From Iphinoe sp. HA4291-MV1 (GTDB taxonomy: Bacteria; Cyanobacteriota; Cyanobacteriia; Cyanobacteriales; Nostocaceae), in contig JAHHHH010000067.1 of NCBI GenBank assembly GCA_019359415.1, positions 1 to 43,764 on the forward strand: a stretch of DNA of 43,764 nt, written 5' to 3'. The notes below the pieces were generated by a model. The model was given only the letters and a program-made list of their open reading frames with translations. It ran no database searches and was not told the DNA's origin. Shown in pieces: positions 17,570 through 36,558 of the stretch. The translations under genes and the position numbers were made by a program. The stretch's first letter is position 1; every line of letters starts with the position of its first letter.

Positions 17570-18598
17570 TTATATCATGCATAACGTTTCATTGATCGCT
17601 GTCATCAATAACTCATTTAGAGGAATTCCCATTGCTTTCGCCATACAGGAAATCACACTTTTGGGGGAAAAAGTACAATATAACCCGGCTTCTAAGAACC
17701 AAGGTTGTCCGTTTGGGTCGATCCGGAAGTCAAATAAACTGTAGTGGCGACAGCCCAAAGCCTTATGACACTTCTTAGCCATTTGCTGAACCTTTTGGGT
17801 GATCGGGTCGTTAGGGTCTACAATCCAAGACTTCTTATTATCTTTAGCGGCGAAACGTAAATTGCCATCGTCCGTTTGTTGAAGTTTGTCAGCATAACTG
17901 CGGACAGGTTTGTCGTGGGGGTCTAACAGATACTCTTCAAGGGGTAAACCGACTAGCTCCCCATCTTTGACAAGAATGCCGCATCTGACTTCTCGACCGA
18001 GTTCGATGAATGCTTCTACAATGACTTCATCTGCATATTCAAATGCTTTCTTCAGAGCAGCGTCATAGTCAGTAGCGTCTTTGACTAAGGACATCCCTAA
18101 AGAGTTAGCGGAACTTGCGGGTTTGACGATTGCTGGAGGTGTAATTGTTGGAACGTCTCCTTGGCGGAGCAGTTCTCCACAAGGCACTTTGACCCCTGCT
18201 GCTTCGACAATTGCTTTGGTTTTGGCTTTGTGGGTCGCTATTGCTGTGACATCCGGAGTATTGCCTATGTAAGGAATCTTGAGCAGGTCGAATAGTGCGC
18301 GGTAGTGAGTCATTCCAGGGATACAAAACATTTGTGGCAACATGAGGTCAATGTTTTGCGCTGTTAGAAACTGTATGGCATCAAACAGAGGAATCGGTTT
18401 GGCGGCGGCGATATCTTCTTGACCGAGGGAGCGAGGAAATCGCCACTGGCGATCAGGTGTAATGTATGCAATCACAAAGTCATAGCGTGATGGATCTGTC
18501 GTTGCTACCAGACAGTCTTGGGCGTAAAGGCGTGACAAATCACAGTAAAAATCATTGTGTGCAGATCCAACTAAATGAAGGATACGAAGTAATGACAT
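17570..18598 (-). CDS. mysD: MysD, D-Ala-D-Ala-ligase-like ATP-grasp enzyme of MAA biosynthesis
   Basis: 342 residues, normal length, uninterrupted. It has the ATP-grasp order: N-terminal lobe, IVKPASSANSLGMSLVKD (phosphate-binding loop), VIVEAFIELGREVRCGIL, and the metal site DFRIDPNGQPWFLEAGLYCTFSP. MysD condenses a second amino acid (Ser, Thr, Gly and others) with mycosporine-glycine to give disubstituted imino-MAAs such as shinorine or porphyra-334, UV sunscreens. Its place next to mysC and MAA-locus remnants supports this over a true cell-wall D-Ala-D-Ala ligase. The upstream neighbour is the broken EamA copy B. It is probably functional, but it needs mycosporine-glycine supplied from mysA/B function. 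Confidence 0.85.
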   Translation of the reverse strand: MSLLRILHLVGSAHNDFYCDLSRLYAQDCLVATTDPSRYDFVIAYITPDRQWRFPRSLGQEDIAAAKPIPLFDAIQFLTAQNIDLMLPQMFCIPGMTHYRALFDLLKIPYIGNTPDVTAIATHKAKTKAIVEAAGVKVPCGELLRQGDVPTITPPAIVKPASSANSLGMSLVKDATDYDAALKKAFEYADEVIVEAFIELGREVRCGILVKDGELVGLPLEEYLLDPHDKPVRSYADKLQQTDDGNLRFAAKDNKKSWIVDPNDPITQKVQQMAKKCHKALGCRHYSLFDFRIDPNGQPWFLEAGLYCTFSPKSVISCMAKAMGIPLNELLMTAINETLCMI

Positions 18599-18680
18599 GA
18601 TTCATTTTCCTAGATATAATAACTTTCAACTGGAAAAATTAATTAATAACCTTTGGACTACCGCCCAGTCTCCAATTCCT

Positions 18681-19337
18681 CTACATAGCTGACTCTACCT
18701 CTTCCTTGATCGCAAATTGGCTAGATGAAGTTATATATACCCCTAAAACAATCACAACAAAACTTATTAATGTAGCCCAGTTGAGGCTTTCCGAAAAGAT
18801 AACCCAAGCTTCCAAAGAGCTAATGATAGGAACCAACAGATCGCATAAGGAGACAAATCCTGAAGATAATCTGTTGAGGGAATAAGCGTAAAGTCCCAAG
18901 CCTAGTATTTGGCATATTAGGGCTAGGAAAATGACGTAAACCCACCCACTCAACGAATAAGGGAAAAGTCTACCTTCAGTGAGTAGAACAATAGGTAAAA
19001 GCAACAGAGAGCCGATCGCGGAATACCACGTCATAATAATTACTGAACTTAATTGAGTTTGTAATTGTTCGATGATGAGTGGGTATAGACCAAGAAACAC
19101 GGCTGAGAGGAATGCTGCGATATCTCCTTGGAGTTGGCTAGTCGTAAAGGAAATGTCATGGTATGTTAGGGGAACAGTCCCTGCGATCGCTACAAACATA
19201 CCGATAAGGAATCTTCTGTCAAAGTGCTTTCCCCAAATCAGCCAGCCCCCCAAGACGGTGAACAGTGGAGCCAAATAGTGCATGAGCGTAGAGTTAGCGA
19301 CGCTGGTCTGAGTGAGTGACCAAGCCCAGAGAATAAG
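18681..19337 (-). pseudogene. EamA-type transporter, 5' truncated (copy B)
   Basis: About 218 codons of the C-terminal portion. From 19337 the reverse strand reads LILWAWSLTQTSVANSTL and then the standard MHYLAPLFTVLGGWLIWGK; the frame runs to a natural end at KEEVESAM. It is the complementary half of copy A: it has the true C-terminus (SFVSLCDLLVPIISSLEAW) but no N-terminal four to five helices. Homology to copy A ends abruptly at 19337, where repeat-like sequence begins. A Met at 19283 would allow a short product, unlikely to be active. It sits between mysC and mysD. Confidence 0.75.
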
Positions 19338-19460
19338 GGGGTTTCCCTTCTGTCCTCTGACTTGAAAGTAGGGAACTCTTAACAGGGAACAGGAAAAATA
19401 TCACTTTCATGCATGGTGGTGACATTTTTTCATTGGGACTGCCTTATTCCTTCTGCCCTG

Positions 19461-19495
19461 CCCCGTTCGCGCAGCGTCTCCGGAGGAGAAGGGGC
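19461..19495. repeat. GC-rich palindromic repeat next to mysC stop
   Basis: GCGCAGCGTCTCC and GGAGAAGGGGC, the same core as at 11230-11260, lie 7 bases beyond the mysC stop codon. They may act as a hairpin at the 3' end of the mysC message. The sequence between here and EamA copy B also holds AACAGGGAACAGG, an inverted relative of the TGTTCCC run in the second MITE. Confidence 0.5.
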
Positions 19496-19501
19496 TTGAT
19501 T

Positions 19502-20899
19502 TCAATCACCACCTAATTCTACAAGTTTACCAATATTAAAATCAATTCTTGTCCAACCTTTTAGTTGTCGCAAATTATTGAGCAAAAGCAAGGCAATTTG
19601 CCAATGATGTACCATCAAAAACGGCAGTGGGTCATCCAGCTGATAAATAGCATCAGTACCTCGTAAAAAGTTGCGTATCCAAGTTTGCAGTTGAGCAAAG
19701 GAACGAATACCAGTTAACCGCCAGACTTCGTGATATGTCCAGTATGTCGGCTTGCTATTTGGTAATGGCTGGAGAGGTTCGGTGAACGATTCTTCACTCA
19801 AATAAGCATCTGCAACTTGTGGATGGTTGTAAAACATTGTAATCGCCGAATGCGTTCGAGGATTACATTCAATAGCGTAAACTGTCCCATCTTCAGCTTG
19901 GATAAAATCGAAGGAAATTTGTCCAGTAATTCCTAGTTCTCTGACAAAATGCGTCACCCATTCCTGAATTTTTGGGTTTTCTACATTTTCGTAATTAACT
20001 TGAAAAGCTGAAGATTCTGAACAGCAGTGCAGCCGCAACTCTCCATTCTTAACTGTACTGTGAGTGCAAAATTCCTTGCCAGGAATAAATTCTTGCATAA
20101 TCCAGGATTTTTCTGGACTGATTGGTAAACTTTTGACGAATGCTGCTGTTTCCTCTGGAGTATCGCAAGGTAACTTAGTTAAATCTAAACGGCGTACCGA
20201 GTCGTAGGGAATGCTTTTAAGAATATACTTGCGAGTTTCCCCAGAAAAGTCAAAATTCAGGACTTGTTCAGGATTGGTAATTTTGAAGAATTTGGGAACC
20301 GATAAGCCAAGCGCTCTGGCTTTTTCACTAAAAGCAAATTTATCATCCAACATTTGGGTGACATCAGCGTCGAAGTGAAAAACTTCGCAATAGGGTGATA
20401 GTGCAGGCTTTGCTAAAGAGTCATAGTAACTCGCAATTGGACTCGTGACAGGAACATAAACATCAATGTTTTCTTTCTTAACGATGTCTAGTAAAGCTTG
20501 GATATAAGCTTCTGGATCGTATTGCGGGGTGGGAGTTGTATAAAAGCGAGAAATTGCACGAGAAAACCGATGACCAGATAACCAGTATTTGTGGGTTTCT
20601 ACCAAGACAACTCTGTGTCCCGCAGCGTGAAAAGAACGAGCAAGCTGTAACGCTTTCGTCATTTTACCACCGCTAATCAGGATATTTTTGCGGTTTGCAG
20701 CTACGGTTGTCTGAGGACGAACAAGACGACTGAAGCGACTCCAAACCAAAGATATTAGAACTATAGCAGCATTGATGGGCAATACTAACAAGAGTATTGT
20801 CAAGGTGCCAAGGTTCTGGAATAAAGCTTTGACTTGTGCCATCAAAGAAATTGGTGATGTTGTTTCTGTATTAAATGATAAAGGAAGAGATTGTGCCAT
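19502..20899 (-). CDS. mysC: MysC, ATP-grasp ligase of MAA biosynthesis
   Basis: 465 residues, complete. After an N-terminal hydrophobic helix (about residues 33-55, probably a membrane anchor) comes KNILISGGKMTKALQLARSF, then an ATP-grasp fold: YILKSIPYDSVRRLDL, SWIMQEFIPGKEFCTHS and the metal-binding AIECNPRTHSAITMF. MysC joins glycine to 4-deoxygadusol to make mycosporine-glycine. The sequence pattern, including PVTSPIASYYDSLAK, matches cyanobacterial MysC. It stands downstream of the broken mysB/mysA on the same strand, with 224 bases of hairpin-rich sequence between. The enzyme looks intact, but its substrate supply within the cluster is broken. Confidence 0.9.
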   Translation of the reverse strand: MAQSLPLSFNTETTSPISLMAQVKALFQNLGTLTILLLVLPINAAIVLISLVWSRFSRLVRPQTTVAANRKNILISGGKMTKALQLARSFHAAGHRVVLVETHKYWLSGHRFSRAISRFYTTPTPQYDPEAYIQALLDIVKKENIDVYVPVTSPIASYYDSLAKPALSPYCEVFHFDADVTQMLDDKFAFSEKARALGLSVPKFFKITNPEQVLNFDFSGETRKYILKSIPYDSVRRLDLTKLPCDTPEETAAFVKSLPISPEKSWIMQEFIPGKEFCTHSTVKNGELRLHCCSESSAFQVNYENVENPKIQEWVTHFVRELGITGQISFDFIQAEDGTVYAIECNPRTHSAITMFYNHPQVADAYLSEESFTEPLQPLPNSKPTYWTYHEVWRLTGIRSFAQLQTWIRNFLRGTDAIYQLDDPLPFLMVHHWQIALLLLNNLRQLKGWTRIDFNIGKLVELGGD

Positions 20900-21123
20900 G
20901 ATATTTCGTTATTCATAGTTCGCAATTAAGAAAATTGCGAACTATGAGTTAAACTATTTGGAATTGTCTTGTAGTGTCATGACAGACACGAGTCGTTGAA
21001 GAACTCAGAACTCACAGAGTTCTGTGAAGTCAGAAAAAAGGAATAATATAAGTGCGGTTTTCAGTGATTCTGAATTCTGAGTTCTCACTGCACGAATAAG
21101 CGTACAGGCTAAATGTATGACAG

Positions 21124-21837
21124 CTACGGTAATCGTCGGATAATGGTTAAGCCATCTCGCAGTGGTAACAATACCTGTTCCACACGCGAATCAGCAGCGA
21201 CAACACGGTTAAACTGAGCAATAGCCTCGCCGTTGGGAGTGCGATGGATAGCAGGGAGATAAGCTTGTCCTTGAAGTAGAGTATTGTCTACACAGATAAA
21301 CCCTCCAGGAACGAGCAAATCTTTCTCCAGCAGGATTTGGAAGTACTTGACATACTCCCTTTTATCCGCATCAATGAACACAAAGTCAAATGACTCCCTC
21401 GCATCTGCCAGTTTCTGCAAAGTTTCTAGTGCAGTACCGACTTCTGTGCGAATTTTTGCGCCATGTGGAGATTCCCGGAAAGCAGCTTGCGCGAACTCTG
21501 CGGTGTAAGGGTCAATTTCACAGGCGACTAGTTCTCCATCAAGCGGTAAAGCTTCCGCCATCGCTAATGCAGAATAGCCGGTGAACATACCAACTTCCAG
21601 CACTTTCTTAGCTTTGGTCATGTGGATAAACATCTTGAGAGTTTGTCCTTCCACGTGCCCAGAAAGCATTTCCTGCTCTAATTCTCGCACAGTCGCTTTC
21701 TCGTGGAACCTTTGACTCCAAGCTTCCTGAGCGGTTTTATGAGCTAGCGCTGCGAGAGCTGGTGATTCACGGGTGGTACATTCCTCTAAATAGGGATCTA
21801 AACCTGCTGCTAAAAGCCATTTTTCAGCTTTTTGTGG
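21124..21837 (-). pseudogene. mysB: MysB O-methyltransferase, 5' deleted
   Basis: An open frame from 21837 covers about 237 codons, of which the first usable start is a GTG at 21690 (188 residues); upstream in the same frame is a stop at 21838-21840. The SAM site is present (KVLEVGMFTGYSALAMAEALP, then ACEIDPYTAEFAQ and FVFIDADKREY), as in class I catechol-type O-methyltransferases. About 45 N-terminal residues normal for MysB are gone, lost in the mysA-mysB deletion. MysB methylates the demethyl precursor to 4-deoxygadusol. With no proper start and a missing N-terminus it is probably inactive, though a short product is possible. Confidence 0.8.
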
Positions 21838-22316
21838 TTAACCGCTACTTTGATAGCAACACTTGCATCAATCAAACCAATGAGAGTGGTCGGAATGCGA
21901 ATGTAGTTGCTACTGCGGCGGTAAGCAGAACAGGCAAAACCTGCAACATCTGTGATAAGTCCACCACCAATCACTAACACTGGTTCCTTGCGAACCAACC
22001 TGAATTCAGCAAAAGCATCAATAATCTTCTCGAAAGACTCAATCGTCTTGTTTGGCTCAGTGATAGTGATAGGAAAAACCGTCAGGTCAATGTCGTAACA
22101 CTTGAAGTATTGCTGGATTTGACTGCTGTAGAGTTTATACACATTTTCATCTACAACAACTAAGCAGCGTCCAAAATCTTTATAGACTTCTGCCAGTTGT
22201 GGATTTTTGATTGCAAAAACCCCATCAACATAGATTAGGCTGTACTCAATCTTTTCGTAAGCCTCTACATGAAAAGCGGTTTCAGTGGCTTCAAACTTTG
22301 CTTGAACTGTACTCAT
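21810..22316 (-). pseudogene. mysA: MysA (demethyl-4-deoxygadusol synthase), 3' deleted
   Basis: The first 164 residues of a DHQ-synthase-like enzyme of the EVS/DDGS group: [20 protein letters not shown], then [15 protein letters not shown] (NAD loop) and [20 protein letters not shown]. The normal length is about 410. After [12 protein letters not shown] it stops at TAG 21812-21810, precisely where MysB sequence begins. All metal- and substrate-binding residues of the C-terminal half are lost. The start ATG 22316 (MSTVQAK) is the usual one. Certainly non-functional. Confidence 0.85.
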
Positions 22317-22343
22317 TATTTTTGACCTACAAGTTGATAATAT

Positions 22344-22359
22344 CCCCCAAAAATGGGGG
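22344..22359. promoter_or_regulatory. Short C5/G5 hairpin upstream of mysA
   Basis: CCCCC (22344-22348) and GGGGG (22355-22359) pair around AAAAAT. It lies about 28 bases before the mysA start, in the presumed 5' leader, where it could affect translation or act as a protein site. No known operator matches. Confidence 0.3.
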
Positions 22360-23154
22360 ACTCTTTGCAAGACAGCGGTTACTCTAATGCACTCAAAAAC
22401 TACACTTCTATCCTTGAACAAACTGCCCAATGGACATGAGGACTGAAGGCGAATAAGTTAACAGAAACAAATATTCCCCTCCCGTCTAAAAAGGTTTTGA
22501 GCATACTTTAGTCGTTGATTTGAATTTGATTAGCCCACTTTTGAGCCAAACTTACTGATATCAGGTTAAAATTCCACTATTTGCAGAAAAATCCTGATAC
22601 TTCACAGGGTGATAGCTATCGAATAATCAGCGTATCTTGACCTAATTTTCAAATTATCACATTTTAAAAAGATTTGTTAATTTTTTTTATATTTTTTGCT
22701 TCCTCTCAGGATTTCAGTCTAGAGAATCGGTAATGTATTGCCAGTACAATCAAAACATTTGAAAAATTATAATGTGACAAGCTATTATTAGAAACTGGTT
22801 TTTGCATTTGGTGACTTTTGCTTACCATTACAGACCAAGAAGCTCTTCGTAACGATCGATACAATAACCTTTTATAATAAGTCTCAGTTGATAAAGCTTC
22901 TACCTAAAGAACGAATATAAAACACTTCTGTTTAGTAAAGGGAGATACAAAGGAACTATAACTAGCAGTTAGGAATCTGATCGCACCGTTATCACTAAAG
23001 TTGAAGGCAAAATCACACCTCTAGTGGTTGCTTATGTTAAAGCAGCTTATGAAACCCCCACTTGCTAGGTCGGTTATCCACCCACTTTCTTATCCGTTAT
23101 CTCGCCTAGGATTTAGCCACAATTTAAGTAAGGTCATTTCTAGAAAAACAAACT
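22360..23154. other. Gene-free stretch upstream of the MAA locus
   Basis: About 800 bases, AT-rich, presumably holding the mysA promoter. I find only a 30-codon open frame at about 22975-23067 (DRTVITKVEGKITPLVVAYV then KAAYETPTC) with no start; it may be a gene relic. A T-run at 22680-22696 is seen. Confidence 0.45.
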
Positions 23155-24908: not shown

Positions 24909-24996
24909 TGTTAAAAAACCTATGTAGAATTTAATTTTGCTGCAAGCATTGGCAGACAATTTACCATAGCTATTTAGCTACATTACCTTTTGATTG

Positions 24997-26328
24997 ATGG
25001 ATAATCAAGCGATCGCAAAGATTCAATTCCTCCAGCGCCAAGCAGCGTCCCTCTTACTCTACCAATCCGCCGTCCAAAGCGAAGTGGGGAGCGCATATCT
25101 TGACCTGTTGCAATCAATACGCTACACTGATGCCGACGCACGGGGTTGCCTCCAAGCATACGGCAATTACTTCAGATGCTTGGCTGCCAAACATCAAAAC
25201 TGGGAGGAATATCTTATTACTCAAATTCTCAGAGCAGAGAATCCTTTTACTCAGCTAGCTCAACAGCAAGAATTTGAAGATTTCCCTCCAGCTTTAGTAG
25301 CAGCAGTTCAGCATGATTTACAAGCGTTGCAAAGTCTTTATGAGTGTAGCAGCGCTGCTTTGAGTGAGTGGGTGCAAGACGTGGCACATCTGGGTGTTTC
25401 ACCAGTCGTATGGTATGTAGAGAAAGATGAAATAGCAAGAATTCATGAATTGCCGCTGATTGAGAAACTAGAACAGTTAGAAAATTGGGCTGATGCGGTG
25501 AAAGAACTGGCAGCGTATTATCGCCAATTTGGTACAGGTTTATTTGCAGAGTATCAGGCTTTGCGTTGGCAAGCTGGGCAGTTTGTCGGAATACGCTATC
25601 CTGATCCAGTTCAGTTGAATCAACTTGTGGGTTACAAGTCGCAAAAAGAAGCTTTGTTGAAAAACACAGAGTTTTTATTATCCGGACAAGTGGCGCTGCA
25701 TGTCTTACTTTACGGTAGTCGCGGTTCGGGAAAATCTTCTTTAGTGAAAGCTTTGCTGAATGAGTATGGCGAGCACAACTTACGCTTACTGGAAGTCGCA
25801 AAATCTGAGTTGAGAGACTTACCAGACATTGTGGAACAGTTACGCAATGTCCCACAGAAGTTTATCATCTTTGTCGATGACCTGTCTTTTGAAGAAGACG
25901 ATGATGCTTTCAAAGCACTCAAAGTGGTTTTGGAAGGCAATTTAACCGCACGACCTCAAAACATTGTCGTGTATGCTACTTCTAACCGTCGCCACTTAAT
26001 TCGAGAGTTTTTTGCTGATAGACCATCTCCCAAAGACAACGACGAAGTTCATGCATGGGATACCATGCAAGAGAAGCTATCTTTTAGCGATCGCTTTGGT
26101 TTGACTTTGACTTTTGAAGGCGCTGATCAGAAAACTTACTTACAAATTATCCGGCATCTTGCGGCGCAAGCTGGAATTGATATGAGTCAGGAAAATTTGG
26201 AACGTCAAGCTTTACAATGGGCAACTCGCCATAATGGTCGTTCTGGAAGAACAGCAAGACAATTTGTTGATTTCTTGAAAGCAGATTTGACACTGTCTCG
26301 TTCAACCTACCATGCAGCGAACACATAA
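24997..26328 (+). CDS. DUF815-family AAA+ ATPase
   Basis: 443 residues. The N-terminal 190 are helical and variable. Then comes LNQLVGYKSQKEALLKNTEFLLSG, a Walker A loop at 240-248 (GSRGSGKSS), a Walker B region IIFVDDLSFEEDDDAF and a sensor-like VVYATSNRRHLIREFF. These are diagnostic of DUF815, predicted AAA+ ATPases found across bacteria whose partners are unknown. A TTG directly precedes the ATG; ATG was used. It is on the same strand as the TerB-C/ATPase/helicase genes, but 134 bases lie between and no link is shown. Confidence 0.88.
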   Translation: MDNQAIAKIQFLQRQAASLLLYQSAVQSEVGSAYLDLLQSIRYTDADARGCLQAYGNYFRCLAAKHQNWEEYLITQILRAENPFTQLAQQQEFEDFPPALVAAVQHDLQALQSLYECSSAALSEWVQDVAHLGVSPVVWYVEKDEIARIHELPLIEKLEQLENWADAVKELAAYYRQFGTGLFAEYQALRWQAGQFVGIRYPDPVQLNQLVGYKSQKEALLKNTEFLLSGQVALHVLLYGSRGSGKSSLVKALLNEYGEHNLRLLEVAKSELRDLPDIVEQLRNVPQKFIIFVDDLSFEEDDDAFKALKVVLEGNLTARPQNIVVYATSNRRHLIREFFADRPSPKDNDEVHAWDTMQEKLSFSDRFGLTLTFEGADQKTYLQIIRHLAAQAGIDMSQENLERQALQWATRHNGRSGRTARQFVDFLKADLTLSRSTYHAANT

Positions 26329-26462: not shown

Positions 26463-27770
26463 ATGTTAAAAACAAGCAATATGCAATCAGCAATAGTGAG
26501 TAATCGACTTATTATAGGTATAGTTGCCTTTGGCGTGAGTTTTGGTCTGAGTCTCGTCCTTAGCTGGGATTTTAACAAAGCCTTTCTCACAGGTGTAGTC
26601 ACTGTACCTGCTACGTATCTATCGGTATTGTTTGTAGATAAACGTAAAAGAAACCATGAAATACTGATTTTAGATTCTCTACAAAGGCGAATTAGAGATC
26701 TTGAAGGATTAAAGTCTCGCATTATCGCAGAAGTTTATCAACTGGAAGCTCATAACGCTTTACTGCATACAGAGTCAAGTAATTTACAAAATCAAGTTAT
26801 AGAACGACGTAACCAGAGAGATACTCTCAATAGAGAGCTAAGCACTTACGTCATAGAAAAAAAACAGTTAGAAGCAAAAATAAACTATCTACAAAATGAA
26901 CTTCACGCACTAGACCAATCAAAAGTAGAACTTAACAATACCTTTTCTGCATTAACAGCCGAAAAACGCCGTTTAGAATTGAAATCTAATGTATCACGTG
27001 CTGAAATAACTCAATTACAAGCTCAAATAAACGAATTCCAACAGCAAAAGCAAGAATTAGAAAGTAGCTTAACTCTACTAAATCGGCTAAAGCCTCAACT
27101 AGAAGAGAAATTACACGAGTTGCGAGTGCAAATACAAGAGTTAGAAGTTCAGGAAAACCAACAAAAGCAACTCATTTTAGAGAAAAAAGCCGAGAAGGAA
27201 CATATAGAAGCAAGCCTCAATTCTTTACAAACCCAACTGACAGAACAACAAATCGAATTACAACAATTGCAAGAGCAAGTTATATTGTTGCAAGGGGAAC
27301 GCGACCAGTTGCAAAGCCAAGTTTGGGAGCTTCTCCACCAAATGGGAACCCTGACAACTCAGGAACAATTGAATGAAAACGGACAGGAAGAGAGCGAAGA
27401 TCTCTTTCCTTTCTCTGAATTACTAGAGTCTTTAGAACCACCAATAGATACTACCGATAGAGGAGAAAATTTCTCTGAAGAATGGGCTGAGTTTACCAAG
27501 CAGCTACAGAGTTATGAAATTCGGGTATTAAAAGCTATGCTAGAACAAGATAACCCTAATGCTGCTATTAAAAAGATTGCTGAAGAAAATATTACAATGC
27601 CAAATCTACTGATTGATTCCATTAATGAACTTGCCAATAATACTATTGGTGAATTAATAATTGACCCAAATTCGGAAACTCCAGAAATTTATGAAGAACA
27701 TAGGACTAATATAAAAAAAGTCATTGCAATGTACGAAAATAAAATGGCTGAACCAACCTCATTTAACTAA
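26463..27770 (+). CDS. Membrane-anchored coiled-coil protein with a TerB-C-like domain
   Basis: 435 residues. Two membrane segments (about 15-35 and 41-58: IIGIVAFGVSFGLSLVLSW and FLTGVVTVPATYLSVLFV) are followed by a very long coiled coil (about 65-300, rich in Leu, Gln and Glu). After an acidic linker, about 340-425 form a compact domain (QSYEIRVLKAMLEQDNPNAA, then MPNLLIDSINELANNTIGEL and IDPNSETPEIYEEH). This end matches the TerB-C domain known from tellurite/phage/DNA-processing gene groups. Its neighbour 148 bases downstream is the DUF2791 ATPase. A role as membrane-tethered scaffold of that module is inferred. Confidence 0.75.
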   Translation: MLKTSNMQSAIVSNRLIIGIVAFGVSFGLSLVLSWDFNKAFLTGVVTVPATYLSVLFVDKRKRNHEILILDSLQRRIRDLEGLKSRIIAEVYQLEAHNALLHTESSNLQNQVIERRNQRDTLNRELSTYVIEKKQLEAKINYLQNELHALDQSKVELNNTFSALTAEKRRLELKSNVSRAEITQLQAQINEFQQQKQELESSLTLLNRLKPQLEEKLHELRVQIQELEVQENQQKQLILEKKAEKEHIEASLNSLQTQLTEQQIELQQLQEQVILLQGERDQLQSQVWELLHQMGTLTTQEQLNENGQEESEDLFPFSELLESLEPPIDTTDRGENFSEEWAEFTKQLQSYEIRVLKAMLEQDNPNAAIKKIAEENITMPNLLIDSINELANNTIGELIIDPNSETPEIYEEHRTNIKKVIAMYENKMAEPTSFN

Positions 27771-27918
27771 ATGTATATACCATATTCTTCCTAGGTTTAA
27801 GCTGGAAATGCTTTCATCGCTAGGCACCATCTTTGGTAAATTGCAAGAGGAGACAGCCCACTAAATAGCTTTCCCACGTGCTTCGTAGGAACGAGAAAAG
27901 TGAGGTGCAGTAATTTAA

Positions 27919-29247
27919 ATGACAAAGCTCAAAATCTCAAAAAAAGTATCCACTGCTTTGATAAACTCTCTAGGCGCGGGAGTCGTACCTAGAGTAGGAC
28001 TAGAACACATAGCGGTAGGACGGGAACAAGAACTCAAAAGCCTATCGCAAAATCTTAATGATATAGCAGAAGGGATAGCAGCATTTCGCTTCGTCATTGG
28101 CAATTACGGTTCAGGGAAAAGCTTCATGCTACAACTGCTTCGTAATCGTGCTATGGAGCAAGGTTTTGTCGTAGCTGATGCTGACTTATGCTGGGAACGC
28201 CGACTAGCCGGAAGCAACAACGAAGGGTTGGCGACATATCGAGAATTAATGAGTCACCTTGCTACAAAAACGCGTCCTGATGGTGGTGCGTTGGTTTCTA
28301 TTTTGGAAGGATGGATTAATAAAATCCAACAAGAAGTCGCTAAAGAAACTGGAATGCGTCCCAATGATGAAGGTTTTGATGACCAAGTTGAAGAAAAAAT
28401 CAGGGAAGTCGTTCAGTATATTGAAGACTTAGTTCACGGATTTGATTTTGGCAGCGTTATTGTTGCTTATTGGCGCGGCTATCGCTTGGATGATGATGAT
28501 TTGAAAAATGCAGCACTGCGGTGGTTGCGGGGAGAATTTACCACTAAAATTGAGGCAAAAGCAGCCTTGGGAGTACGTGTCATTATTGATGATGAGAGTT
28601 GGTATGACTACATCAAGCTTATAGCGAAATTTGTTGCTGAGATTGGCTATAAAGGTCTTTTAATTCTGCTTGATGAAGCTGCACATTTATACCAGATATC
28701 TCCTACAGTGACACGGGAGAAAAACTATAACAGATTACTGAGGATGTTCAATGATATCATGCAGTGTAAAGCAGAGCATCTTGGCATTTTTCTTGGTGGT
28801 ACTACAAGATTTTTAGAAGATCCAAATCGGGGGCTTTTTGCAGATGCTGCTTGGCGAAGACGGACAAAAGAGAGTCGTTTTGTCACTCAAGCAGGTGTCC
28901 AGGAATATATGGGACCAGTGATGCGTCTTAACCCACTCATGGAAGAAGAAATCCTTACTCTTTTGCAAAGATTAACAGAAATTCATACTATTAATTTTGG
29001 TTACGAAAAGACTTTAACAAACCGTAATTTGAAAGATTTTGTCAAAGAAATTGTTAGCCGCTTGGGTGCGGAAGCTTTGCTGACACCAGGTGAAATTGTG
29101 CGGGATTTTATTAGTGTATTGAATATTCTTTATCAAAACCAAAATTTCTCTTTTGGTGAACTCATTCATGGTGCTGATTTTAAACCGACTGTTAAGGGTA
29201 AAGATGCAGATGTGGATGAGGATGATGTAGCAGAATTTAGTTTGTAA
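27919..29247 (+). CDS. DUF2791/BrxD-like P-loop ATPase
   Basis: 442 residues. Walker A at 61-68 (GNYGSGKS), and Walker B at 246-253 (GLLILLDE) followed by AAHLY. In between it has typical family features: VVADADLCWERRL and GRE near residue 35, and later GIFLGGTTRFLEDPNRGLF. This is the DUF2791 group, which includes BrxD of type 2 BREX phage-defence systems. In Ter-associated operons the same ATPase stands with TerB proteins and a large helicase. Here the TerB-C gene is just upstream and the Lhr-like helicase 3 kb downstream. DNA-related, ATP-driven function is family knowledge; the exact role is not known. Confidence 0.88.
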   Translation: MTKLKISKKVSTALINSLGAGVVPRVGLEHIAVGREQELKSLSQNLNDIAEGIAAFRFVIGNYGSGKSFMLQLLRNRAMEQGFVVADADLCWERRLAGSNNEGLATYRELMSHLATKTRPDGGALVSILEGWINKIQQEVAKETGMRPNDEGFDDQVEEKIREVVQYIEDLVHGFDFGSVIVAYWRGYRLDDDDLKNAALRWLRGEFTTKIEAKAALGVRVIIDDESWYDYIKLIAKFVAEIGYKGLLILLDEAAHLYQISPTVTREKNYNRLLRMFNDIMQCKAEHLGIFLGGTTRFLEDPNRGLFADAAWRRRTKESRFVTQAGVQEYMGPVMRLNPLMEEEILTLLQRLTEIHTINFGYEKTLTNRNLKDFVKEIVSRLGAEALLTPGEIVRDFISVLNILYQNQNFSFGELIHGADFKPTVKGKDADVDEDDVAEFSL

Positions 29248-29361
29248 AAGTAATTGCAAGACTTAAGAAAAGAATACATGCTTTAAAAACCAAAAAAACT
29301 CTTAGCTACACCCAGCCAAGAAAGCAGTTGCACTAGTATCGGCACAGTCCTGCCAAGTACA

Positions 29362-29469
29362 TATAGCACTTCTCGTTTGAATCAAGTACAGATTTATCTG
29401 CGTCCAACAGAAGTCCATCTGCGGTTTTTTAATTCTTTAATGTATTGCACTCAAATGCAAACCGCTATA
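29362..29469. mobile_element. MITE-like element, 108 bp, TATAGC termini
   Basis: The left end TATAGCACTTCTCGTTTGAA and the reversed right end TATAGCGGTTTGCATTTGAG share 13 of 20 bases. The inside has a T-rich strand with AGTCCATCTGCGG. Non-coding. It lies in the gap between the ATPase gene and a reverse-strand secreted protein, so it forms part of the material separating the ATPase from the helicase. Confidence 0.5.
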
Positions 29470-29507
29470 TTTCCGCTATGCTTTACTAGCCTTTAGAACA
29501 CAACTTT

Positions 29508-30251
29508 CTATTGTTGACCGACAGGTACTTTTTGTTTTTTTAATTTTCGTATCTCTTGATCATCTGCATCTAGTTTATAAATAAACCCAAACTCTTGAGC
29601 AATACGTCTACGAATACCTCGGGGTGGGTAAAGAGGGACGACTAAAAATGATGAAGTTGCGTAAGAATCAGCAGTTCTTATAAGCTCTAAAGCTTGGTCT
29701 TTTGATAAACCTTGCTCTAAGTTCTTTTGAAAGATGTCAGCTAAACAGGTACTTCTTCTTCCCTGCCGTCTAAATCGCTCTTTATCTTTATAAAGTTGAA
29801 TAATATCTTCGAGACAATTACTATACTGCTGGATGTTAGTAAAGGTAAATGTATATTGAGATTTCATTTGTCTAGAATCTGGCTGACTTTGCACAGAACT
29901 TTCAGGACGTGTTTGATTCTGTAGAGGTTTTATCTCATCTGTTGCAGAATCATAAATGTATTCTCCAGGTTTCAGCCCTCTTCCTCTTACACAAATTTTG
30001 TTTGTCTCTAATTGAAGGCTTGCAGTTTCATTACTACATTTAACTGGTGTGAGACCAAAGTCAGTTAGGAATTGGCTAATATTAGGTGGCAAAGAAATCC
30101 CTGGATCTTGAGCAATCACTGGATTTAGTTGATTAGTAGATGTTTGACTCAATGCAGGTATAGCTATGCCTAAGTTCGTTACCACGATACTTAACCAAAG
30201 TCCTGACAAAATCTTCAGTCTTTTACATATTTGGTGAGATACAGCACTCAT
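29508..30251 (-). CDS. Secreted hypothetical protein
   Basis: About 247 residues from ATG 30251 (other starts at 30266 and 30287 are possible). A signal peptide spans about residues 10-36 (LSGLWLSIVVTNLGIAIPALS). The mature part has ISLPPNISQFLTDFGLTPVKC and an NKICVRGRGLKPGEYIYD piece, then a basic region (KDKERFRRQGRR) and LVVPLYPPRGIRRRIAQEFG at the C-terminus. Two to three cysteines may form a disulfide. I do not recognise the family. It runs opposite to the flanking ATPase and helicase genes. Confidence 0.6.
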   Translation of the reverse strand: MSAVSHQICKRLKILSGLWLSIVVTNLGIAIPALSQTSTNQLNPVIAQDPGISLPPNISQFLTDFGLTPVKCSNETASLQLETNKICVRGRGLKPGEYIYDSATDEIKPLQNQTRPESSVQSQPDSRQMKSQYTFTFTNIQQYSNCLEDIIQLYKDKERFRRQGRRSTCLADIFQKNLEQGLSKDQALELIRTADSYATSSFLVVPLYPPRGIRRRIAQEFGFIYKLDADDQEIRKLKKQKVPVGQQ

Positions 30252-30485
30252 AATTATTATTACCATTACGGTTAATACAAAAAACACTTATTAGTGGATT
30301 TGACAATGTTGGTGGAATACCGTGCTTCCAGAATTATCCCATTTTCATACATCCTGTTTTACTCCGTTCATGACGACTACTTAATTCATCTCGGTACTGT
30401 ACCTGGAGATGAAGTTGAAGTTGGAATCGGAGTTGGAGTTACAGTTGGAGTTGATTTAACACTTGGAGCACGATTATTAGTTGGA

Positions 30486-31899
30486 TTATTCCCGTCTCCT
30501 AGGAGGATTGCCATTATCAATTGCATTTATCAAGCCAAATAATCCAAGAACAGCGAGAGCAGATAGTGCCTCGACAGTTTCGTTTTTGCCTGGAGAAGGT
30601 TTATTAGATTGACCTATGGCTCTTCGGTAATCCTCCAGTTGAGTAGCATTATATCTTTTGCTAGGTACTCGACAGTATCTGCCCGAATCTGTCGATAAAG
30701 GGCAAGAGATCTATCCACTTTTCCTGTCTCTGTATCTTTTAGTGCCTGTGCTTCTGCACCTTTAAGAAAATCAAGCTTTGACGAAGAGTTGGATGTGTTG
30801 ACTTGGTTGCGACTGCTCCAACTATCCAAGGATAATTGCCAATATTTTTCAGAATTCCACCAACCATATCCAACTGCTCCCAAGATAGCTGCCGAAATCG
30901 TGGCTATAACTAGGGTTCGTCTGCGAAGCTCTCGTTGCTTAACGCGATCGCGCAATCCAACACTAGTATTAATAAACTGATTCGCCGCCGGACTAAATCC
31001 ACCCAACACTTGATTAAATGTCGAGTGTTTTCGCAGTTCTAAAACTTTCTCTAACTTTGAGCCACCCCACAATTCATCCTCAGCTTTTTTCGCTTCCCAG
31101 CGTCCCACATCATCATTTAATCGGTTGCGGAGCGCTATCGCTTGACGATTTTCCTGAATCCAGTTATTCAAGGTTGTCCAGGAAATAAGCAGCGTTTCAT
31201 GGGCAATTTCTACGGTAGATTGCTGAGATTGCAGGGGGCGGTTACTCACTAACAAATTATTATTAATCAATTTAGTCAGCACACCTTGCTCAAGTTCATC
31301 GCTAAACTCAGAACGTAGCGCCCGTCTGCGAACTGCTTTCCATTCAGTACCAGAGTCTTCATCCCCACCAATATCAACCAGTTTGAGGAAGATTCTCTGA
31401 GTAGCTAACTTTTCCGGTTCTGGTAACGCCCCATAAATGCTATCCACCCGTTGTTGCAGCGCACCCCTGACACCACCTAACTGGCGGTAGGTACTAATAT
31501 TTAACGTGCGGTCTTGAATACTACCATTTTTGACTTCTGTTTTCCAAAGTAAATCCAACGTGTACTGTAATAGTGGTAGATAGCCTGCCTGTCCTTGAAT
31601 ATCCTTGATAATTTCCTCTACCAGTTCAGTTTCAAACACTACACCATGATGCGCCGCAGGTTGTTCAATTGCTAACCGCAACTCATCCGGTTGCATTTCT
31701 GCAATCAACGGACAATGTTTATCCGTAGCTTTTACTAGCTGAGGATAGGGGCTTAATCTATCAAGAAAATCAGCCCGCATTGTCGCCATAATTTTGACAG
31801 AACGATTCTTGGTGTTACTCAATTTCACTAAGCTGGTGATAAACTGGTCACGCTTTTGGGGCTGACTGGTGGTGAATAACTCCTCAAACTGATCAATTT
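30486..31899 (-). pseudogene. nSTAND-type NTPase, 5' truncated and frameshifted
   Basis: From 31899 the reverse strand reads IDQFEELFTTSQPQKRDQFI (Walker B-type region), then MATMRADFLDRLSPYPQLV, YLPLLQYTLDLLWKTE and AHETLLISWTTLNNWI. These are the second part of nSTAND1 NTPases. The P-loop and N-terminal half are missing. The break lies beside a TATAGCAGTTC sequence that resembles the MITE tips. A membrane helix (LVIATISAAILGAVGYGWW) follows. Near 30656-30659 one A is lost in an A-run; the other frame continues RYNATQLEDYRRAIGQSN and ends at 30486. STAND proteins sense ligands in defence or signalling. Not functional. Confidence 0.75.
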
Positions 31900-32230
31900 A
31901 AGAACTGCTATAGTATTCCACTGCGTTAACGCACGCTACAAATTTACTCTATAATATTTTTTTCCAGATATAATTGAAAATCCAAAATTAATATCTAGGA
32001 CTGACGCATTGACAGAAATCATCAAGTATGCTGTTTGAATTTTCAGACATTGAAGTTTGATTTTTCCACCACTAGCTAGCGATCGCCGAACGCGAGTGCG
32101 TTCCACAGGAAAGGCTTAAGCTCCGCTTATCGCCACCCATTTGAGAGCAGTCGCCAACAGTCTGAAACGACCGCATTTCGTTAATACACATAATAGTCGA
32201 TTTGAGAGCGTGCGTAAGTCTTAATATCAT

Positions 32231-34513
32231 ATGAGCAATGCTATATTTTCCAGACTTGCCCCATTTATTCAAGAATATATTTACAATCATAACTGGACTG
32301 AATTACGACCAGTTCAAATCGAAGCTTGTAAAGTTATATTTAACACTGATGCTCATTTGCTCGTTGCTGCTGGTACTGCTTCGGGGAAAACAGAAGCAGC
32401 ATTTCTACCTGTTTTGACTCTCTTACATGAAAATCCTTCTGCTACTATTGGCGCACTCTACATTGGTCCTATTAAAGCTTTAATTAATGACCAATTTGAA
32501 CGTCTCAATGATTTGTTACGAGAGGCGGATATCCCTGTTTGGTATTGGCATGGTGATGTTAGCCAAAGTCATAAAACCAAGCTTCTTAAGAATCCTAAAG
32601 GTATTCTGCAAATTACGCCAGAATCTTTAGAAAGTTTGTTAATCAAGAAACATCATGAATTAACACGTTTGTTTGGTGATTTGCGGTTTATCATCATCGA
32701 TGAAATTCACGCATTTATGGGTTCAGAACGAGGTTGTCAGATTCTTTGTCAATTGGCACGGTTGGCAAGAGTGACGCAAATTCAACCCCGAAGAATTGGT
32801 TTATCGGCGACTCTTGGTGATTACTCTATGGCTGAGGAATGGTTACGTTCTGGAACTGAACAGTTGGTGATGACTCCGAAAATTGAAGGGGGAAAACGTC
32901 AAATTAAACTTGCTGTGGAGCATTTTTATGTTTTTGAAACGAACCGCAGAGGCGCAGAGGAGCCAGTGCGTTGCGGGGGTTCCCCCCGTTGTAGCACCTG
33001 GCGTGACGCAGAGAGAGGAAAAGAGGAGATAGAGGAAAGTGTAAGTGTATATGATAGATATATTTTTAATTTGAGTAAATCTCGGAAGTGTCTGGTTTTT
33101 GCTAATAATAAATCGCAAACGGAATCTGTTATTTCATCTTTGCGTCAAATTGCTGCTGATGAGGGGTATCCAGATATTTATCATGTGCATCATGGCAGTA
33201 TTTCTGCTAGTTTGCGTCAAGCGGCTGAGGCTGCTATGCGTGAACCGAATTATCCAGCAGTGACTGCTGCTACGTCGACTTTAGAATTGGGTATAGATAT
33301 TGGTTATTTGGAGCGAGTTATTCAGTTGGAATCGCCTCTTTCTGTTGCTAGTTTTTTACAGCGGTTAGGACGTACTGGAAGAAGAGGTGAAGCTGCTGAT
33401 ATGAGGTTTGTTTGCGCTGAGGAGAAAGTTTCTGCAGAAGCATCGTTACCGGAACAAATTCCTTGGCAACTTTTGCAATGTATTGCAATTATCCAACTTT
33501 ATTTGGAAGAGCGTTGGATTGAACCCATTAAACCTCTTAGATATCCGTTGAGTTTGTTGTATCATCAAACTATGAGTGTTTTAGTAGCAATGGGAAAACT
33601 TTCACCTGCTGCTCTTGCTAAACAGGTTTTAAATCTACCAGTTTTTGCTGCTATTTCTCAAGAAGATTTTAAGTTATTGTTGCGCTATCTCATTGATATT
33701 GACCATCTTCACTTAACTGAACAAGGTAAGTTAATTGTTGGTTTAGCTGGAGAAAAGGTGGTAGGAAAATTTCAGTTTTATGCTGTCTTTCCTGATAATC
33801 AAGAATATATTGTAAAGCAAGGAACAACAGAAATTGGTAGTATCGTCATACCGTCTTCTGTAGGAGGTTTATTCGCTTTAGCAGGGAAAACTTGGGAAGT
33901 TGTAGATGTTGATTTTAAAAGAAAGATTATTTCGGTTAAGCAGGTAGAGGGTAAAGCTAGTATTTATTGGCGGGGTGGTAGTGGCACTATTCATACAAAA
34001 ATTTTGCAACGGATGAGGCAGGTGTTGTTTGAAGATATAGAGTATAGCTACTTACAAAAAAATGCTTTAAAGCGTTTGCAGTTAGTTCGTGAATTAGCAA
34101 GAGATGTTGGACTAGATAGACGTAATATATTGCAATTAGAAAAAGGTAAGTGTTGCATTTTTCCTTGGATGGGTACTGTCGCTCACCGTACCCTGGAAAG
34201 ATTATTGAACTGCTTTTGCCGTGAATCTTTGGAAATTAGCAGTATAAGTGGCAATAATCCTTATTTTTTGATAGTTAAATTAGCTCCAAAAAAAATTGAA
34301 TTCCTTTATTCTGAAATTCTTTCTTTCTGTGAGCAAAGAATAAACAATGAGGATTTAGTGAGTGATGCTGAAGCTCCACAAATCCAAAAGTATGATGAAT
34401 TTATTCCTTACCCACTTTTGCGAAAAGCATTTGCCAGTCATCATTTAGATATGTCGGAACTTAGGCAACAAGTTGCTCTTTGGCAAACTTATAATAGTAA
34501 ATCCTGCTATTGA
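32231..34513 (+). CDS. Lhr/BrxHI-like superfamily 2 DEAD/DEAH helicase with in-frame repeat insert
   Basis: 760 residues. Motif I AGTASGKT (47-54), motif II DEIH (157-160), motif III SATL (192-195), motif V/VI region TSTLELGIDIG (349-359) and QRLGRTGRRG (377-386). A long C-terminal part with WRGGSGTIH follows. It matches the Lhr-type helicases including BrxHI of type 2 BREX and the large helicase of Ter-associated operons. Residues about 237-266 (TNRRGAEEPVRCGGSP...) between the two RecA lobes are encoded by a GC-rich repeat and look foreign. The frame is kept. It is separated from the DUF2791 ATPase by about 3 kb. ATP-driven strand separation is expected. Confidence 0.88.
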   Translation: MSNAIFSRLAPFIQEYIYNHNWTELRPVQIEACKVIFNTDAHLLVAAGTASGKTEAAFLPVLTLLHENPSATIGALYIGPIKALINDQFERLNDLLREADIPVWYWHGDVSQSHKTKLLKNPKGILQITPESLESLLIKKHHELTRLFGDLRFIIIDEIHAFMGSERGCQILCQLARLARVTQIQPRRIGLSATLGDYSMAEEWLRSGTEQLVMTPKIEGGKRQIKLAVEHFYVFETNRRGAEEPVRCGGSPRCSTWRDAERGKEEIEESVSVYDRYIFNLSKSRKCLVFANNKSQTESVISSLRQIAADEGYPDIYHVHHGSISASLRQAAEAAMREPNYPAVTAATSTLELGIDIGYLERVIQLESPLSVASFLQRLGRTGRRGEAADMRFVCAEEKVSAEASLPEQIPWQLLQCIAIIQLYLEERWIEPIKPLRYPLSLLYHQTMSVLVAMGKLSPAALAKQVLNLPVFAAISQEDFKLLLRYLIDIDHLHLTEQGKLIVGLAGEKVVGKFQFYAVFPDNQEYIVKQGTTEIGSIVIPSSVGGLFALAGKTWEVVDVDFKRKIISVKQVEGKASIYWRGGSGTIHTKILQRMRQVLFEDIEYSYLQKNALKRLQLVRELARDVGLDRRNILQLEKGKCCIFPWMGTVAHRTLERLLNCFCRESLEISSISGNNPYFLIVKLAPKKIEFLYSEILSFCEQRINNEDLVSDAEAPQIQKYDEFIPYPLLRKAFASHHLDMSELRQQVALWQTYNSKSCY
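32939..33028. repeat. Palindromic repeat inserted in frame in the helicase gene
   Basis: A GC-rich block runs from ACGAACCGCAGAGGCGCAGA to GACGCAGAGAGAGG, with GGAGCCAGTGCG and GGGGGTTCCCCCC inside. Bases 32972-32997 are an exact inverted copy of 8139-8164 in the first MITE, and GGAGCCAGTGCG is also shared with that region. The outer ACGAACCGCA...CGCAGAG is related to the TTTGCGTCTTTGCGGTTCGT sequence at about 9681-9700. It is thus a nested repeat, translated as about 30 extra residues. Confidence 0.75.
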
Positions 34514-35376: not shown

Positions 35377-36558
35377 TCACCCCTTCACGCAAACAACTTG
35401 CTTGAGAGTTGCCACAACTTCGACTAAATCCGCTTGATTTTTCATCACCTCATCTATCGGTTTATAAGCACTCGGAATTTCATCTAAAACGCCTGCATCT
35501 TTACGACACTCTACACCTTTTGTTTGCTCAATTAAATCATCTAGCGTGTAGGTATTTTTCGCCTTCTTTCTAGATAGCAAACGTCCTGCGCCGTGAGCAC
35601 AACTGCAAAAACTATTGGCACAACCTTTACCCTTAACGATGTAGGATTTTGCCCCCATCGAACCGGGGATAATACCATAGTCTTCTTCTGTTGCGCGGAC
35701 TGCACCTTTGCGAGTGACATAGACATCCTCGCCAAAATGCACTTCTTTTTCAGCGTAGTTGTGATGGCAATTCACCTCTAGTAAAGGCTTAGTTACCTTA
35801 CCACCCGCCAGATGCTTTTCGATAATGCGTTGAAAACGCGCCATCATCACCTCACGGTTGAAACGTGCATAATTCTGCGCCCACTGCAAATCATGCCAGT
35901 ATGCTTGAAATTCTGGCGTATCAGCCACAAAATGAGCTAAATCAGGGTCAGGCAATTTATTATCTGCCATTTTTGCTAATTGTTTAGCTGTATTAATATG
36001 GCACTGGGCTAAATTATTCCCGATATTGCGGGAACCGGAATGTAGCATCAGCCAAACTTGGTTCTCTGTATCGAGGCAAACTTCAATGAAGTGATTTCCT
36101 CCACCGAGAGAACCCATCTGCTTCATCGCTTTAAGATGCAAATCTTGAACGCCTCGATGCAAGTCTTGGAAATCACGCCAGTTCTGCCAGTTAGTGACAC
36201 TTTTTTCAACGTCTTTGTTTTCGTTGAAACCTGTGGGAATTGCTGCTTCAATATCCAAGCGGATTTTCTTTAGTTTACCTTCCAGTTGGTCACTGTTAAA
36301 TGGCGTTTTTATGGCACAGACACCACAACCGATATCCACGCCAACAGCAGCAGGAATAATTGCTTCCTTTGTCGCAATGACAGAACCTACTAAGGCACCT
36401 TTACCCAAATGGACATCTGGCATCAATGCGACGTGCTTATACACAAATGGTAGTGATGCTACATTCTTCGCCATCTTGGTTTCTTCTGCTCCCAAGGAGT
36501 GATTTGCCCAAGACAGAACAGGCGATGGTGTGGAAAGTTTTAACTCTTCGTAAGGCAT
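35377..36558 (-). CDS. rtcB: RtcB-family RNA ligase
   Basis: 393 residues. GVDIGC78G (Mn site), GGGNH155FIEV, LHSGSRNIG, EVNCHHNYAEKE, GIIPGSMGAKSYIVKG and the guanylylated His in CSCAH322GAGR are the signature elements of RtcB, which joins 2',3'-cyclic phosphate or 3'-phosphate ends to 5'-OH RNA ends using GTP. The length and all catalytic motifs fit. No archease, RtcA or RtcR regulator is nearby. It appears as a single-gene unit with its own promoter. Likely job: RNA repair after cleavage stress. It is a housekeeping-type gene between IS1 debris and repeats. Confidence 0.95.
   Translation of the reverse strand: MPYEELKLSTPSPVLSWANHSLGAEETKMAKNVASLPFVYKHVALMPDVHLGKGALVGSVIATKEAIIPAAVGVDIGCGVCAIKTPFNSDQLEGKLKKIRLDIEAAIPTGFNENKDVEKSVTNWQNWRDFQDLHRGVQDLHLKAMKQMGSLGGGNHFIEVCLDTENQVWLMLHSGSRNIGNNLAQCHINTAKQLAKMADNKLPDPDLAHFVADTPEFQAYWHDLQWAQNYARFNREVMMARFQRIIEKHLAGGKVTKPLLEVNCHHNYAEKEVHFGEDVYVTRKGAVRATEEDYGIIPGSMGAKSYIVKGKGCANSFCSCAHGAGRLLSRKKAKNTYTLDDLIEQTKGVECRKDAGVLDEIPSAYKPIDEVMKNQADLVEVVATLKQVVCVKG

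What the first reader, a model, noticed from the sequence alone, without database searches (positions are those of the whole stretch)
26463..34513. TerB-C / DUF2791 ATPase / Lhr-like helicase module without BREX partners
A membrane coiled-coil TerB-C protein, a BrxD-like ATPase and a BrxHI-like helicase lie on one strand. BrxD-BrxHI pairs occur in type 2 BREX, and TerB-ATPase-helicase sets in Ter-associated DNA-processing operons. Here there is no methylase, PglZ, PglY or BrxL. The membrane-anchored coiled coil suggests a distinct anti-phage or DNA-repair assembly at the membrane.
Basis: partly seen in the sequence, partly recalled or inferred. Interest (0 to 1): 0.7.

Follow-up and report, generated by a model that had tools for sequence, protein, structure and literature searches.

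The report
Membrane-tethered Shango variant in cyanobacteria
The three genes are a version of a known anti-virus system, Shango, whose first protein appears to be anchored in the membrane and whose genes are inherited almost like permanent genes in one family of filamentous cyanobacteria instead of travelling as mobile cargo.

Summary
Two things are unusual. (1) SngA lacks TerB_N and TerB; it has a two-helix hydrophobic hairpin, a long helix modelled over residues 37-294 and an acidic winged-helix-like head in the TerB_C region. SngB partners of this form are one clade. (2) The genes behave as near-core genes: of 193 genomes of the window's family SngA matches 188, SngB 167, SngC 169 (broken copies included), with dS similar to rpoB. 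sngC has moved away repeatedly (at least 15 kb from sngB in 30 of 49 genomes placed), yet B and C are present or absent together: 166 both, 23 neither, 4 one only. SngA survives in 19 of those 23. Here an insertion of about 3 kb separates intact sngB and sngC. Best reading: a membrane-tethered, vertically inherited Shango variant in which SngA's head docks the SngB ATPase and/or SngC helicase near incoming or abnormal DNA. Defence versus housekeeping is unresolved.

The parts
26463..27770 (+). sngA variant: two hydrophobic helices + long coiled coil + TerB_C; TerB_N and TerB not found
   Evidence: PADLOC SngA 2.4e-20 on residues 103-421; Pfam TerB_C 1.3e-14; matched in 188 of 193 family genomes
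26493..26636 (+). putative membrane hairpin (residues about 11-58): two hydrophobic helices, basic residues directly after the second
   Evidence: Kyte-Doolittle windows 1.83 and 1.86; region aligned in 41 SngA proteins; low model confidence here, block pLDDT 50-72
26571..27344 (+). continuous helix, residues 37-294
   Evidence: AlphaFold2 model, block pLDDT 81-98 for residues 61-280
27477..27749 (+). acidic winged-helix-like head (residues 339-429) within TerB_C; proposed docking head
27919..29247 (+). sngB: BrxD-like AAA+ ATPase, Walker A (residues 61-68) and Walker B intact
   Evidence: PADLOC SngB 1.1e-173 over residues 1-441; motifs; matched in 167 of 193 family genomes
29254..32230 (.). 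insertion of about 2.98 kb between sngB and sngC (left edge within a few bases), ending directly at the sngC start codon; not present in L033, L035, L037, L038, L039
   Evidence: blastn of window 29000-32500 against relatives
29508..30287 (-). ORF inside the insertion, no family over threshold
30614..31828 (-). nSTAND1 NTPase relic inside the insertion (profile positions 150-378 of 379 only)
   Evidence: Pfam nSTAND1 8.8e-65; part similar to WD40-repeat genes on Nostoc and Dolichospermum plasmids
32231..34513 (+). sngC: Lhr/BrxHI-like SF2 helicase, helicase motifs intact
   Evidence: PADLOC SngC 2.8e-253 over residues 2-746; motifs; matched in 169 of 193 family genomes
24994..26328 (+). DUF815 AAA+ ATPase, constant upstream neighbour of sngA; possible partner of SngA, not a known Shango part
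   Evidence: Pfam DUF815 1e-97; directly upstream of sngA in 76 of 79 named loci, the other 3 cut by a contig end

Best explanation
A variant of the Shango anti-phage system, tethered to the membrane and inherited vertically. SHOWN: matches to all three Shango components; SngA's TerB_N and TerB domains absent, a hydrophobic hairpin and long helix in their place; presence in most of the family; dS similar to a core gene; SngB and SngC present or absent together although often far apart. INFERRED: SngA is an anchored rod (about 38 nm if fully helical) whose acidic winged-helix-like head, the part shared by every SngA I looked at closely, docks SngB and/or SngC. SngB, an AAA+ ATPase of the BrxD kind, loads or activates the SngC helicase on abnormal or incoming DNA near the membrane. 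The outcome is interference with phage or other foreign DNA; I saw no nuclease domain in the three proteins, so a host nuclease or a block of replication is assumed. In this genome sngC has lost its native upstream region to an insertion and would need another promoter.
For: PADLOC hits to all three Shango proteins, SngB and SngC nearly over full length. Eight plasmid Shango loci that I picked out of the 25 listed of 686: TerB_C in 8 of 8 SngA, TerB_N in 7 of 8, TerB over the Pfam cut-off in 3 of 8 and just under it in a fourth, A-B-C adjacent in 8 of 8. SngB partners of the hairpin-coiled-coil SngA form one clade (98/89), sister to Paenibacillus plasmid Shango. SngB and SngC matches: 166 both, 1 and 3 single, 23 neither of 193 (Fisher 1.7e-25, ignoring ancestry). 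Unlinked sngC lies in mostly different surroundings in different lineages, so linkage does not explain the coincidence. Trees of A, B and C recover 7 of 7 sampled genera and largely agree with each other (A-C 21 of 26 splits, no strong conflict). dS of A, B and C similar to rpoB in 11 pairs; median omega 0.17, 0.08, 0.13. TerB_C missing or broken in 5 of 20 SngB-less genomes against 0 of 79 SngB-bearing loci. Acidic head in 78 of 78 named-locus SngA and 12 of 12 others examined. Shango inhibits phages in P. aeruginosa PAO1 (PMC10250203, passages read).
Against: No phage data for this variant. Near-fixation and vertical inheritance are atypical of defence systems. SngA outlives SngB and SngC in 19 of 23 genomes, with omega of its hairpin and coiled coil 0.12-0.34 there, so it has some independent role. 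In SngB-less genomes TerB_C is usually still present (15 of 20), and its divergence relative to the coiled coil is not raised (p = 0.99, p = 0.35). The rpoB tree conflicts with the A, B and C trees at 7, 7 and 9 strongly supported splits. Shared loss of B and C on the tree: 5 of 6 independent pairs, p = 0.06. At least 4 of the 166 'both' genomes hold a broken B and/or C. No complex was predicted; the SngB model failed (pLDDT 46) and the hairpin is modelled with low confidence.
Confidence: 0.55

Rival explanations
1. Domesticated Shango: the module no longer serves mainly against phages but is a core DNA-processing machine (repair, replication restart or DNA uptake) at a membrane of these cyanobacteria.
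For: Matches in 167-188 of 193 family genomes but rare outside: SngB over 500 bits in 13 of 343 and SngA in 7 of 343 non-family genomes; purifying selection and rpoB-like dS; genes often dispersed.
Against: Lost repeatedly, with decay in progress: SngB and SngC broken in G385, SngC broken in G411, G424 and G334, so it is dispensable; omega of B and C is 3 and 5 times that of rpoB.
Confidence: 0.28
2. SngA here is not a Shango subunit but the partner of the DUF815 ATPase; SngB and SngC form a separate loader-helicase pair and the adjacency is frozen synteny.
For: SngA kept in 19 of 23 genomes without B and C; DUF815 directly upstream in 76 of 79 loci and still beside sngA in the 9 SngB-less family loci read at length; A and B apart in G334, G062, G060 and no SngA near SngB in L107.
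Against: The same acidic TerB_C head occurs in canonical SngA; the SngB partners of this SngA form are one clade; head truncations were seen only without SngB. DUF815 also occurs without SngA and is on a different contig from sngA in G185 and G116.
Confidence: 0.2
3. A remnant of type 2 BREX that kept only BrxD and BrxHI.
For: SngB and SngC match BrxD and BrxHI models (PADLOC 4.6e-55 and 6.8e-136).
Against: Shango models score far higher (1.1e-173, 2.8e-253); NCBIfam BrxD 186 bits against a cut-off of 350; no second BrxC/BrxD protein over the cut-off in the genome; a SngA-type protein is present.
Confidence: 0.02
4. A recently acquired ordinary Shango island.
For: Shango-type SngB is common on plasmids: 686 records with a SngB-like match (BrxD-like proteins may be among them).
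Against: dS similar to rpoB; genera recovered in all three trees; DUF815-sngA-sngB order shared across the family.
Confidence: 0.02

Closest known systems
Shango (SngABC) of P. aeruginosa PA14; also reported in E. coli. PMC10250203 (passages read); Millman et al. 2022 (not read; cited in the one passage seen of PMC10952713)
   Same: SngB and SngC match their PADLOC models nearly over full length; SngA shares TerB_C with its acidic end domain
   Different: TerB_N and TerB replaced by a hydrophobic hairpin and long coiled coil; vertically inherited near-core genes; sngC often unlinked; here an insertion of about 3 kb inside the locus
Type 2 BREX BrxD-BrxHI pair; PMC12839542 (abstract, outline and passages read)
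   Same: Same ATPase-helicase pairing; that paper suggests that BrxD may load or activate BrxHI
   Different: No PglX, PglZ, PglW or BrxC seen; lower model scores; a TerB_C protein instead
Hachiman HamAB; PMC12278908 (start of abstract and two passages read)
   Same: Defence helicase; that paper groups SngC with BrxHI, DruE and DpdJ in a potentially distinct SF2 clade
   Different: No nuclease partner seen here; HamB is assigned to the Ski2 helicases there

Membership tests
Shango | SngB, BrxD-like ATPase | tested here: met
   PADLOC SngB 1.1e-173, residues 1-441
Shango | SngC, DEAD/DEAH helicase | tested here: met
   PADLOC SngC 2.8e-253
Shango | SngA with TerB_C | tested here: met
   PADLOC SngA 2.4e-20; Pfam TerB_C over its cut-off
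Shango | TerB_N and/or TerB domain in SngA | tested here: not met
   Neither reported for SngA at E up to 1. TerB_N is also missing in 1 of 8 plasmid SngA and TerB is over the cut-off in only 3 of 8, so typical and not strictly defining; hence 'variant'
Shango | three adjacent co-directional genes | tested here: not met
   A and B adjacent; C separated by about 3 kb here; adjacent in L033, L035, L037, L038, L039
Shango | anti-phage activity | not testable with these tools
   needs an experiment
Type 2 BREX | BrxC/PglY present | tested here: not met
   In the whole genome only SngB is over the BrxC_BrxD cut-off; one further hit of 20.3 bits lies under it
Type 2 BREX | PglX, PglZ and PglW present | tested here: inconclusive
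   Not seen in the 27 of 43 window ORFs scanned; not searched genome-wide
Type 2 BREX | BrxD equivalog score | tested here: not met
   NF033438 186 bits against 350
Ligase-associated DEXH helicase (TIGR04121) | score over the equivalog cut-off | tested here: not met
   226 bits against 850
LysR-type winged-helix domain (head of SngA) | winged-helix fold | tested here: inconclusive

The most novel reading that the evidence does not exclude
In heterocystous cyanobacteria a mobile immune operon has been converted into a dispersed, vertically inherited core machine at the membrane. SngA is a two-partner hub: its coiled coil serves a DUF815 ATPase and its acidic winged-helix head recruits the SngB-SngC loader and helicase, so that the TerB parts have been replaced by membrane tethering.
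Probability: 0.28. Interest if true: 0.75.

Novelty: new variant of a known kind. Interest (0 to 1): 0.55.

Why it matters
Defence systems are expected to be patchy and mobile. Here three Shango genes are carried by most members of a whole family of filamentous cyanobacteria, are inherited like core genes, and stay together as a set after separating physically. This offers a case of an immune-to-core transition and points to the acidic TerB_C head as the likely common link in Shango, whose mechanism I did not find described in the listings and passages that I saw. It also warns that finding these genes in such a cyanobacterium does not by itself indicate a mobile defence island.

Tried and rejected
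Orphan BREX: rejected on model scores and lack of a second BrxC/BrxD protein. Recent island: rejected on dS, trees and gene order. A separate TerB gene that supplies the missing domain: TerB-type matches occur in 53 of 57 chosen genomes, with and without SngB and SngC, so uninformative. DUF815 as a Shango part: found in 13 of 19 chosen genomes, among them ones without SngA, and not always linked; kept only as a possible partner of SngA.

General decay of TerB_C after loss of SngB: not supported by identity ratios (p = 0.99) nor by the omega ratio (p = 0.35). TerB_C omega alone is higher in SngB-less pairs (median 0.43 against 0.18, p = 0.009), but so is that of the coiled coil (0.18 against 0.13, p = 0.011); the SngB-less pairs are mostly closer relatives, which can inflate omega, and the pairs were hand-picked and are not independent.

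rpoB as a reference tree: recovered only 4 of 7 genera and conflicts with the A, B and C trees; used for distances and dS. SngB structure: pLDDT 46, discarded. The insertion showed no clear flanking direct repeats. PDB sequence searches: nothing for SngB (E up to 0.01), only weak hits to designed proteins for the TerB_C end (best E 0.016), Lhr-type and other SF2 helicases for SngC. Papers: no study of Shango in cyanobacteria appeared in the listings. Rows set aside: SngA of G411 (cut by a contig end) and of G385 (SngB broken, TerB_C present) were left out of the 5-of-20 count; one short SngA row (213 aa, G484) was kept.
Full report
WHAT IS THERE. PADLOC assigns them to SngA (2.4e-20, residues 103-421 on profile positions 230-527 of 528), SngB (1.1e-173) and SngC (2.8e-253), the last two nearly over full length: the Shango system, shown to inhibit phages in P. 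aeruginosa PAO1 (PMC10250203; passages read). BREX models score much lower (BrxD 4.6e-55, BrxHI 6.8e-136; NCBIfam BrxD 186 bits against a cut-off of 350). In the whole genome (7.36 Mb, 140 contigs; the window is contig C82) SngB is the only BrxC/BrxD protein over the Pfam cut-off. ATPase and helicase motifs are intact.

NEAR-CORE GENES. In a sample of 193 genomes of the window's family (code f1), SngA matches 188, SngB 167 and SngC 169 (thresholds 1e-15, 1e-30, 1e-60; broken copies count as matches). The 80 named loci (the best 80 of 140 found) are mostly from genera such as Nostoc, Scytonema, Brasilonema and Fischerella, which form heterocysts (recalled). In a phylum sample of 386 genomes my count of the listed rows gives 33 of 43 family members with SngB and 42 of 43 with SngA; outside the family SngB exceeds 500 bits in 13 of 343 (20 of 343 at E 1e-30) and SngA is found in 7 of 343. 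DUF815 lies directly upstream of sngA in 76 of 79 named loci, the other three being cut by contig ends, and a Tmemb_14 gene lies before it in most. Pairwise dS of sngA, sngB and sngC is similar to that of rpoB in 11 pairs (for example 0.40, 0.40, 0.38 and 0.42 for the window against G394; the loosest is sngA 0.49 against rpoB 0.28 for G387-G481); median omega is 0.17, 0.08, 0.13 and for rpoB 0.03. The three gene trees (29 genomes) each recover 7 of 7 genera with two or more sampled members; rpoB only 4 of 7. A and C share 21 of 26 splits without a strong conflict, B and C 19 with 2 conflicts, A and B 18 with 1; A, B and C share only 9, 8 and 9 splits with rpoB and conflict with it at 7, 7 and 9 strongly supported splits. 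I attribute this to weak signal in rpoB (95% identical) but cannot prove it.

DISPERSED YET COUPLED. sngC follows sngB within 4 kb in 20 of 80 named loci, is absent from at least 7 kb of downstream sequence in 51, and 9 loci are too short to tell. Of 49 genomes in which I placed both on one contig (a hand-made selection from the rows), 19 have a gap under 5 kb, 30 at least 15 kb, 24 over 300 kb. In 14 genomes with unlinked sngC the neighbours are mostly lineage-specific, with parts shared among some relatives. Even so, matches to B and C coincide: both 166, B only 1 (G442), C only 3 (G411, G459, G499), neither 23 (some absentees inferred by elimination from capped lists); Fisher p 1.7e-25, ignoring ancestry. 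Closer reading of a few genomes moves some cells: G499 has the start of SngB at a contig end; SngC of G411, G424 and G334 carries internal stops; SngB of G518 is broken and its SngC runs into a contig end; G385 has SngB and SngC broken beside an intact SngA. Thus at least four of the 166 have a broken B and/or C, SngB without an intact SngC occurs in G334 and G424, and I did not examine all 166. On a tree of 67 SngA coiled coils B changes 8 times and C 9 times; of 6 independent pairs 5 go the same way, none the other way, p = 0.06. So shared loss is clear in raw counts and only suggestive after allowing for ancestry.

SNGA OUTLIVES ITS PARTNERS. Of the 23 genomes without B and C, 19 keep SngA. 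In the 9 such family loci read at length DUF815 is still beside it. There its hairpin and coiled coil are under purifying selection (omega 0.12-0.34 in 9 pairs). The TerB_C head is missing or broken in 5 of 20 SngB-less genomes (G149, G233, G522, G397 and, from another family, G005, whose SngC was not searched) and in 0 of 79 SngB-bearing loci (p 2e-4, not corrected for ancestry). Against a simple story, 15 of 20 still have the head and its relative divergence is not raised. I conclude that SngA has a second role, perhaps with DUF815, and that the head is the part tied to SngB and SngC; the latter rests on moderate evidence.

THE WINDOW'S OWN TWIST. In L033, L035, L037, L038 and L039 sngC follows sngB by 69-177 bases. 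In the window about 2.98 kb lies between them, ending at the sngC start codon, so the native upstream sequence of sngC is gone. The insertion holds an uncharacterised ORF and an nSTAND1 relic, partly similar to WD40-repeat genes on Nostoc and Dolichospermum plasmids. sngC remains a full-length ORF; its omega against two relatives (0.17, 0.16) is at the upper end of the range seen in the 11 pairs (0.08-0.17). The same-genus genome G474 has a gap of about 9 kb, and the sequence after sngB in L034, a close Brasilonema, is unrelated to the window's insertion.

HOW IT MOST LIKELY WORKS. SngA is a membrane-anchored rod whose acidic head recruits SngB and/or SngC; SngB, as suggested for BrxD with BrxHI (PMC12839542, passages read), loads or activates the SngC helicase; the target is incoming or abnormal DNA near the membrane. 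Steps shown: components, architecture, inheritance, co-occurrence. Steps inferred: membrane location, docking, loading, target, outcome. Whether the fixed function is defence or housekeeping cannot be settled from sequence; I lean to a retained immune function because repeated losses show that it is dispensable, with domestication as the main rival.

VERDICT. Known kind (Shango), new variant. The surprise is less the trio than its conversion into dispersed, inherited near-core genes with a membrane tether in place of the TerB parts.

Noticed in passing
window 17570-22430: Genes resembling a mycosporine-like amino acid cluster (DHQ-synthase-like, ATP-grasp, D-Ala-D-Ala-ligase-like; cluster name recalled). 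The DHQ-synthase-like frame is only about 206 aa, so its second half seems missing.
   Followed up: partly
window 30614-31828: nSTAND1 NTPase relic on the opposite strand inside the insertion, partly similar to WD40-repeat genes on cyanobacterial plasmids.
   Followed up: partly
L185 4496-5029: In G039, which has no SngA match, a gene next to DUF815 encodes a 177-aa TerB-type protein, a hint of an older DUF815-Ter link.
   Followed up: no
L318, L319, L321, L322, L324, L326: Several genomes carry open frames of about 850-900 aa with a TerB domain; for G493, G042, G338 and G451 only one SngB match each was found, so these are not second canonical Shango loci by that test: possibly another Ter-linked system.
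   Followed up: no
L161 5608-8527; L156 8180-8902: In G060 DUF815 is directly upstream of sngB with sngA on another contig; in G062 a 240-aa ORF without a confident family sits between sngB and sngC.
   Followed up: no
window 35377-36558: RtcB-type RNA ligase gene on the opposite strand downstream of sngC.
   Followed up: no
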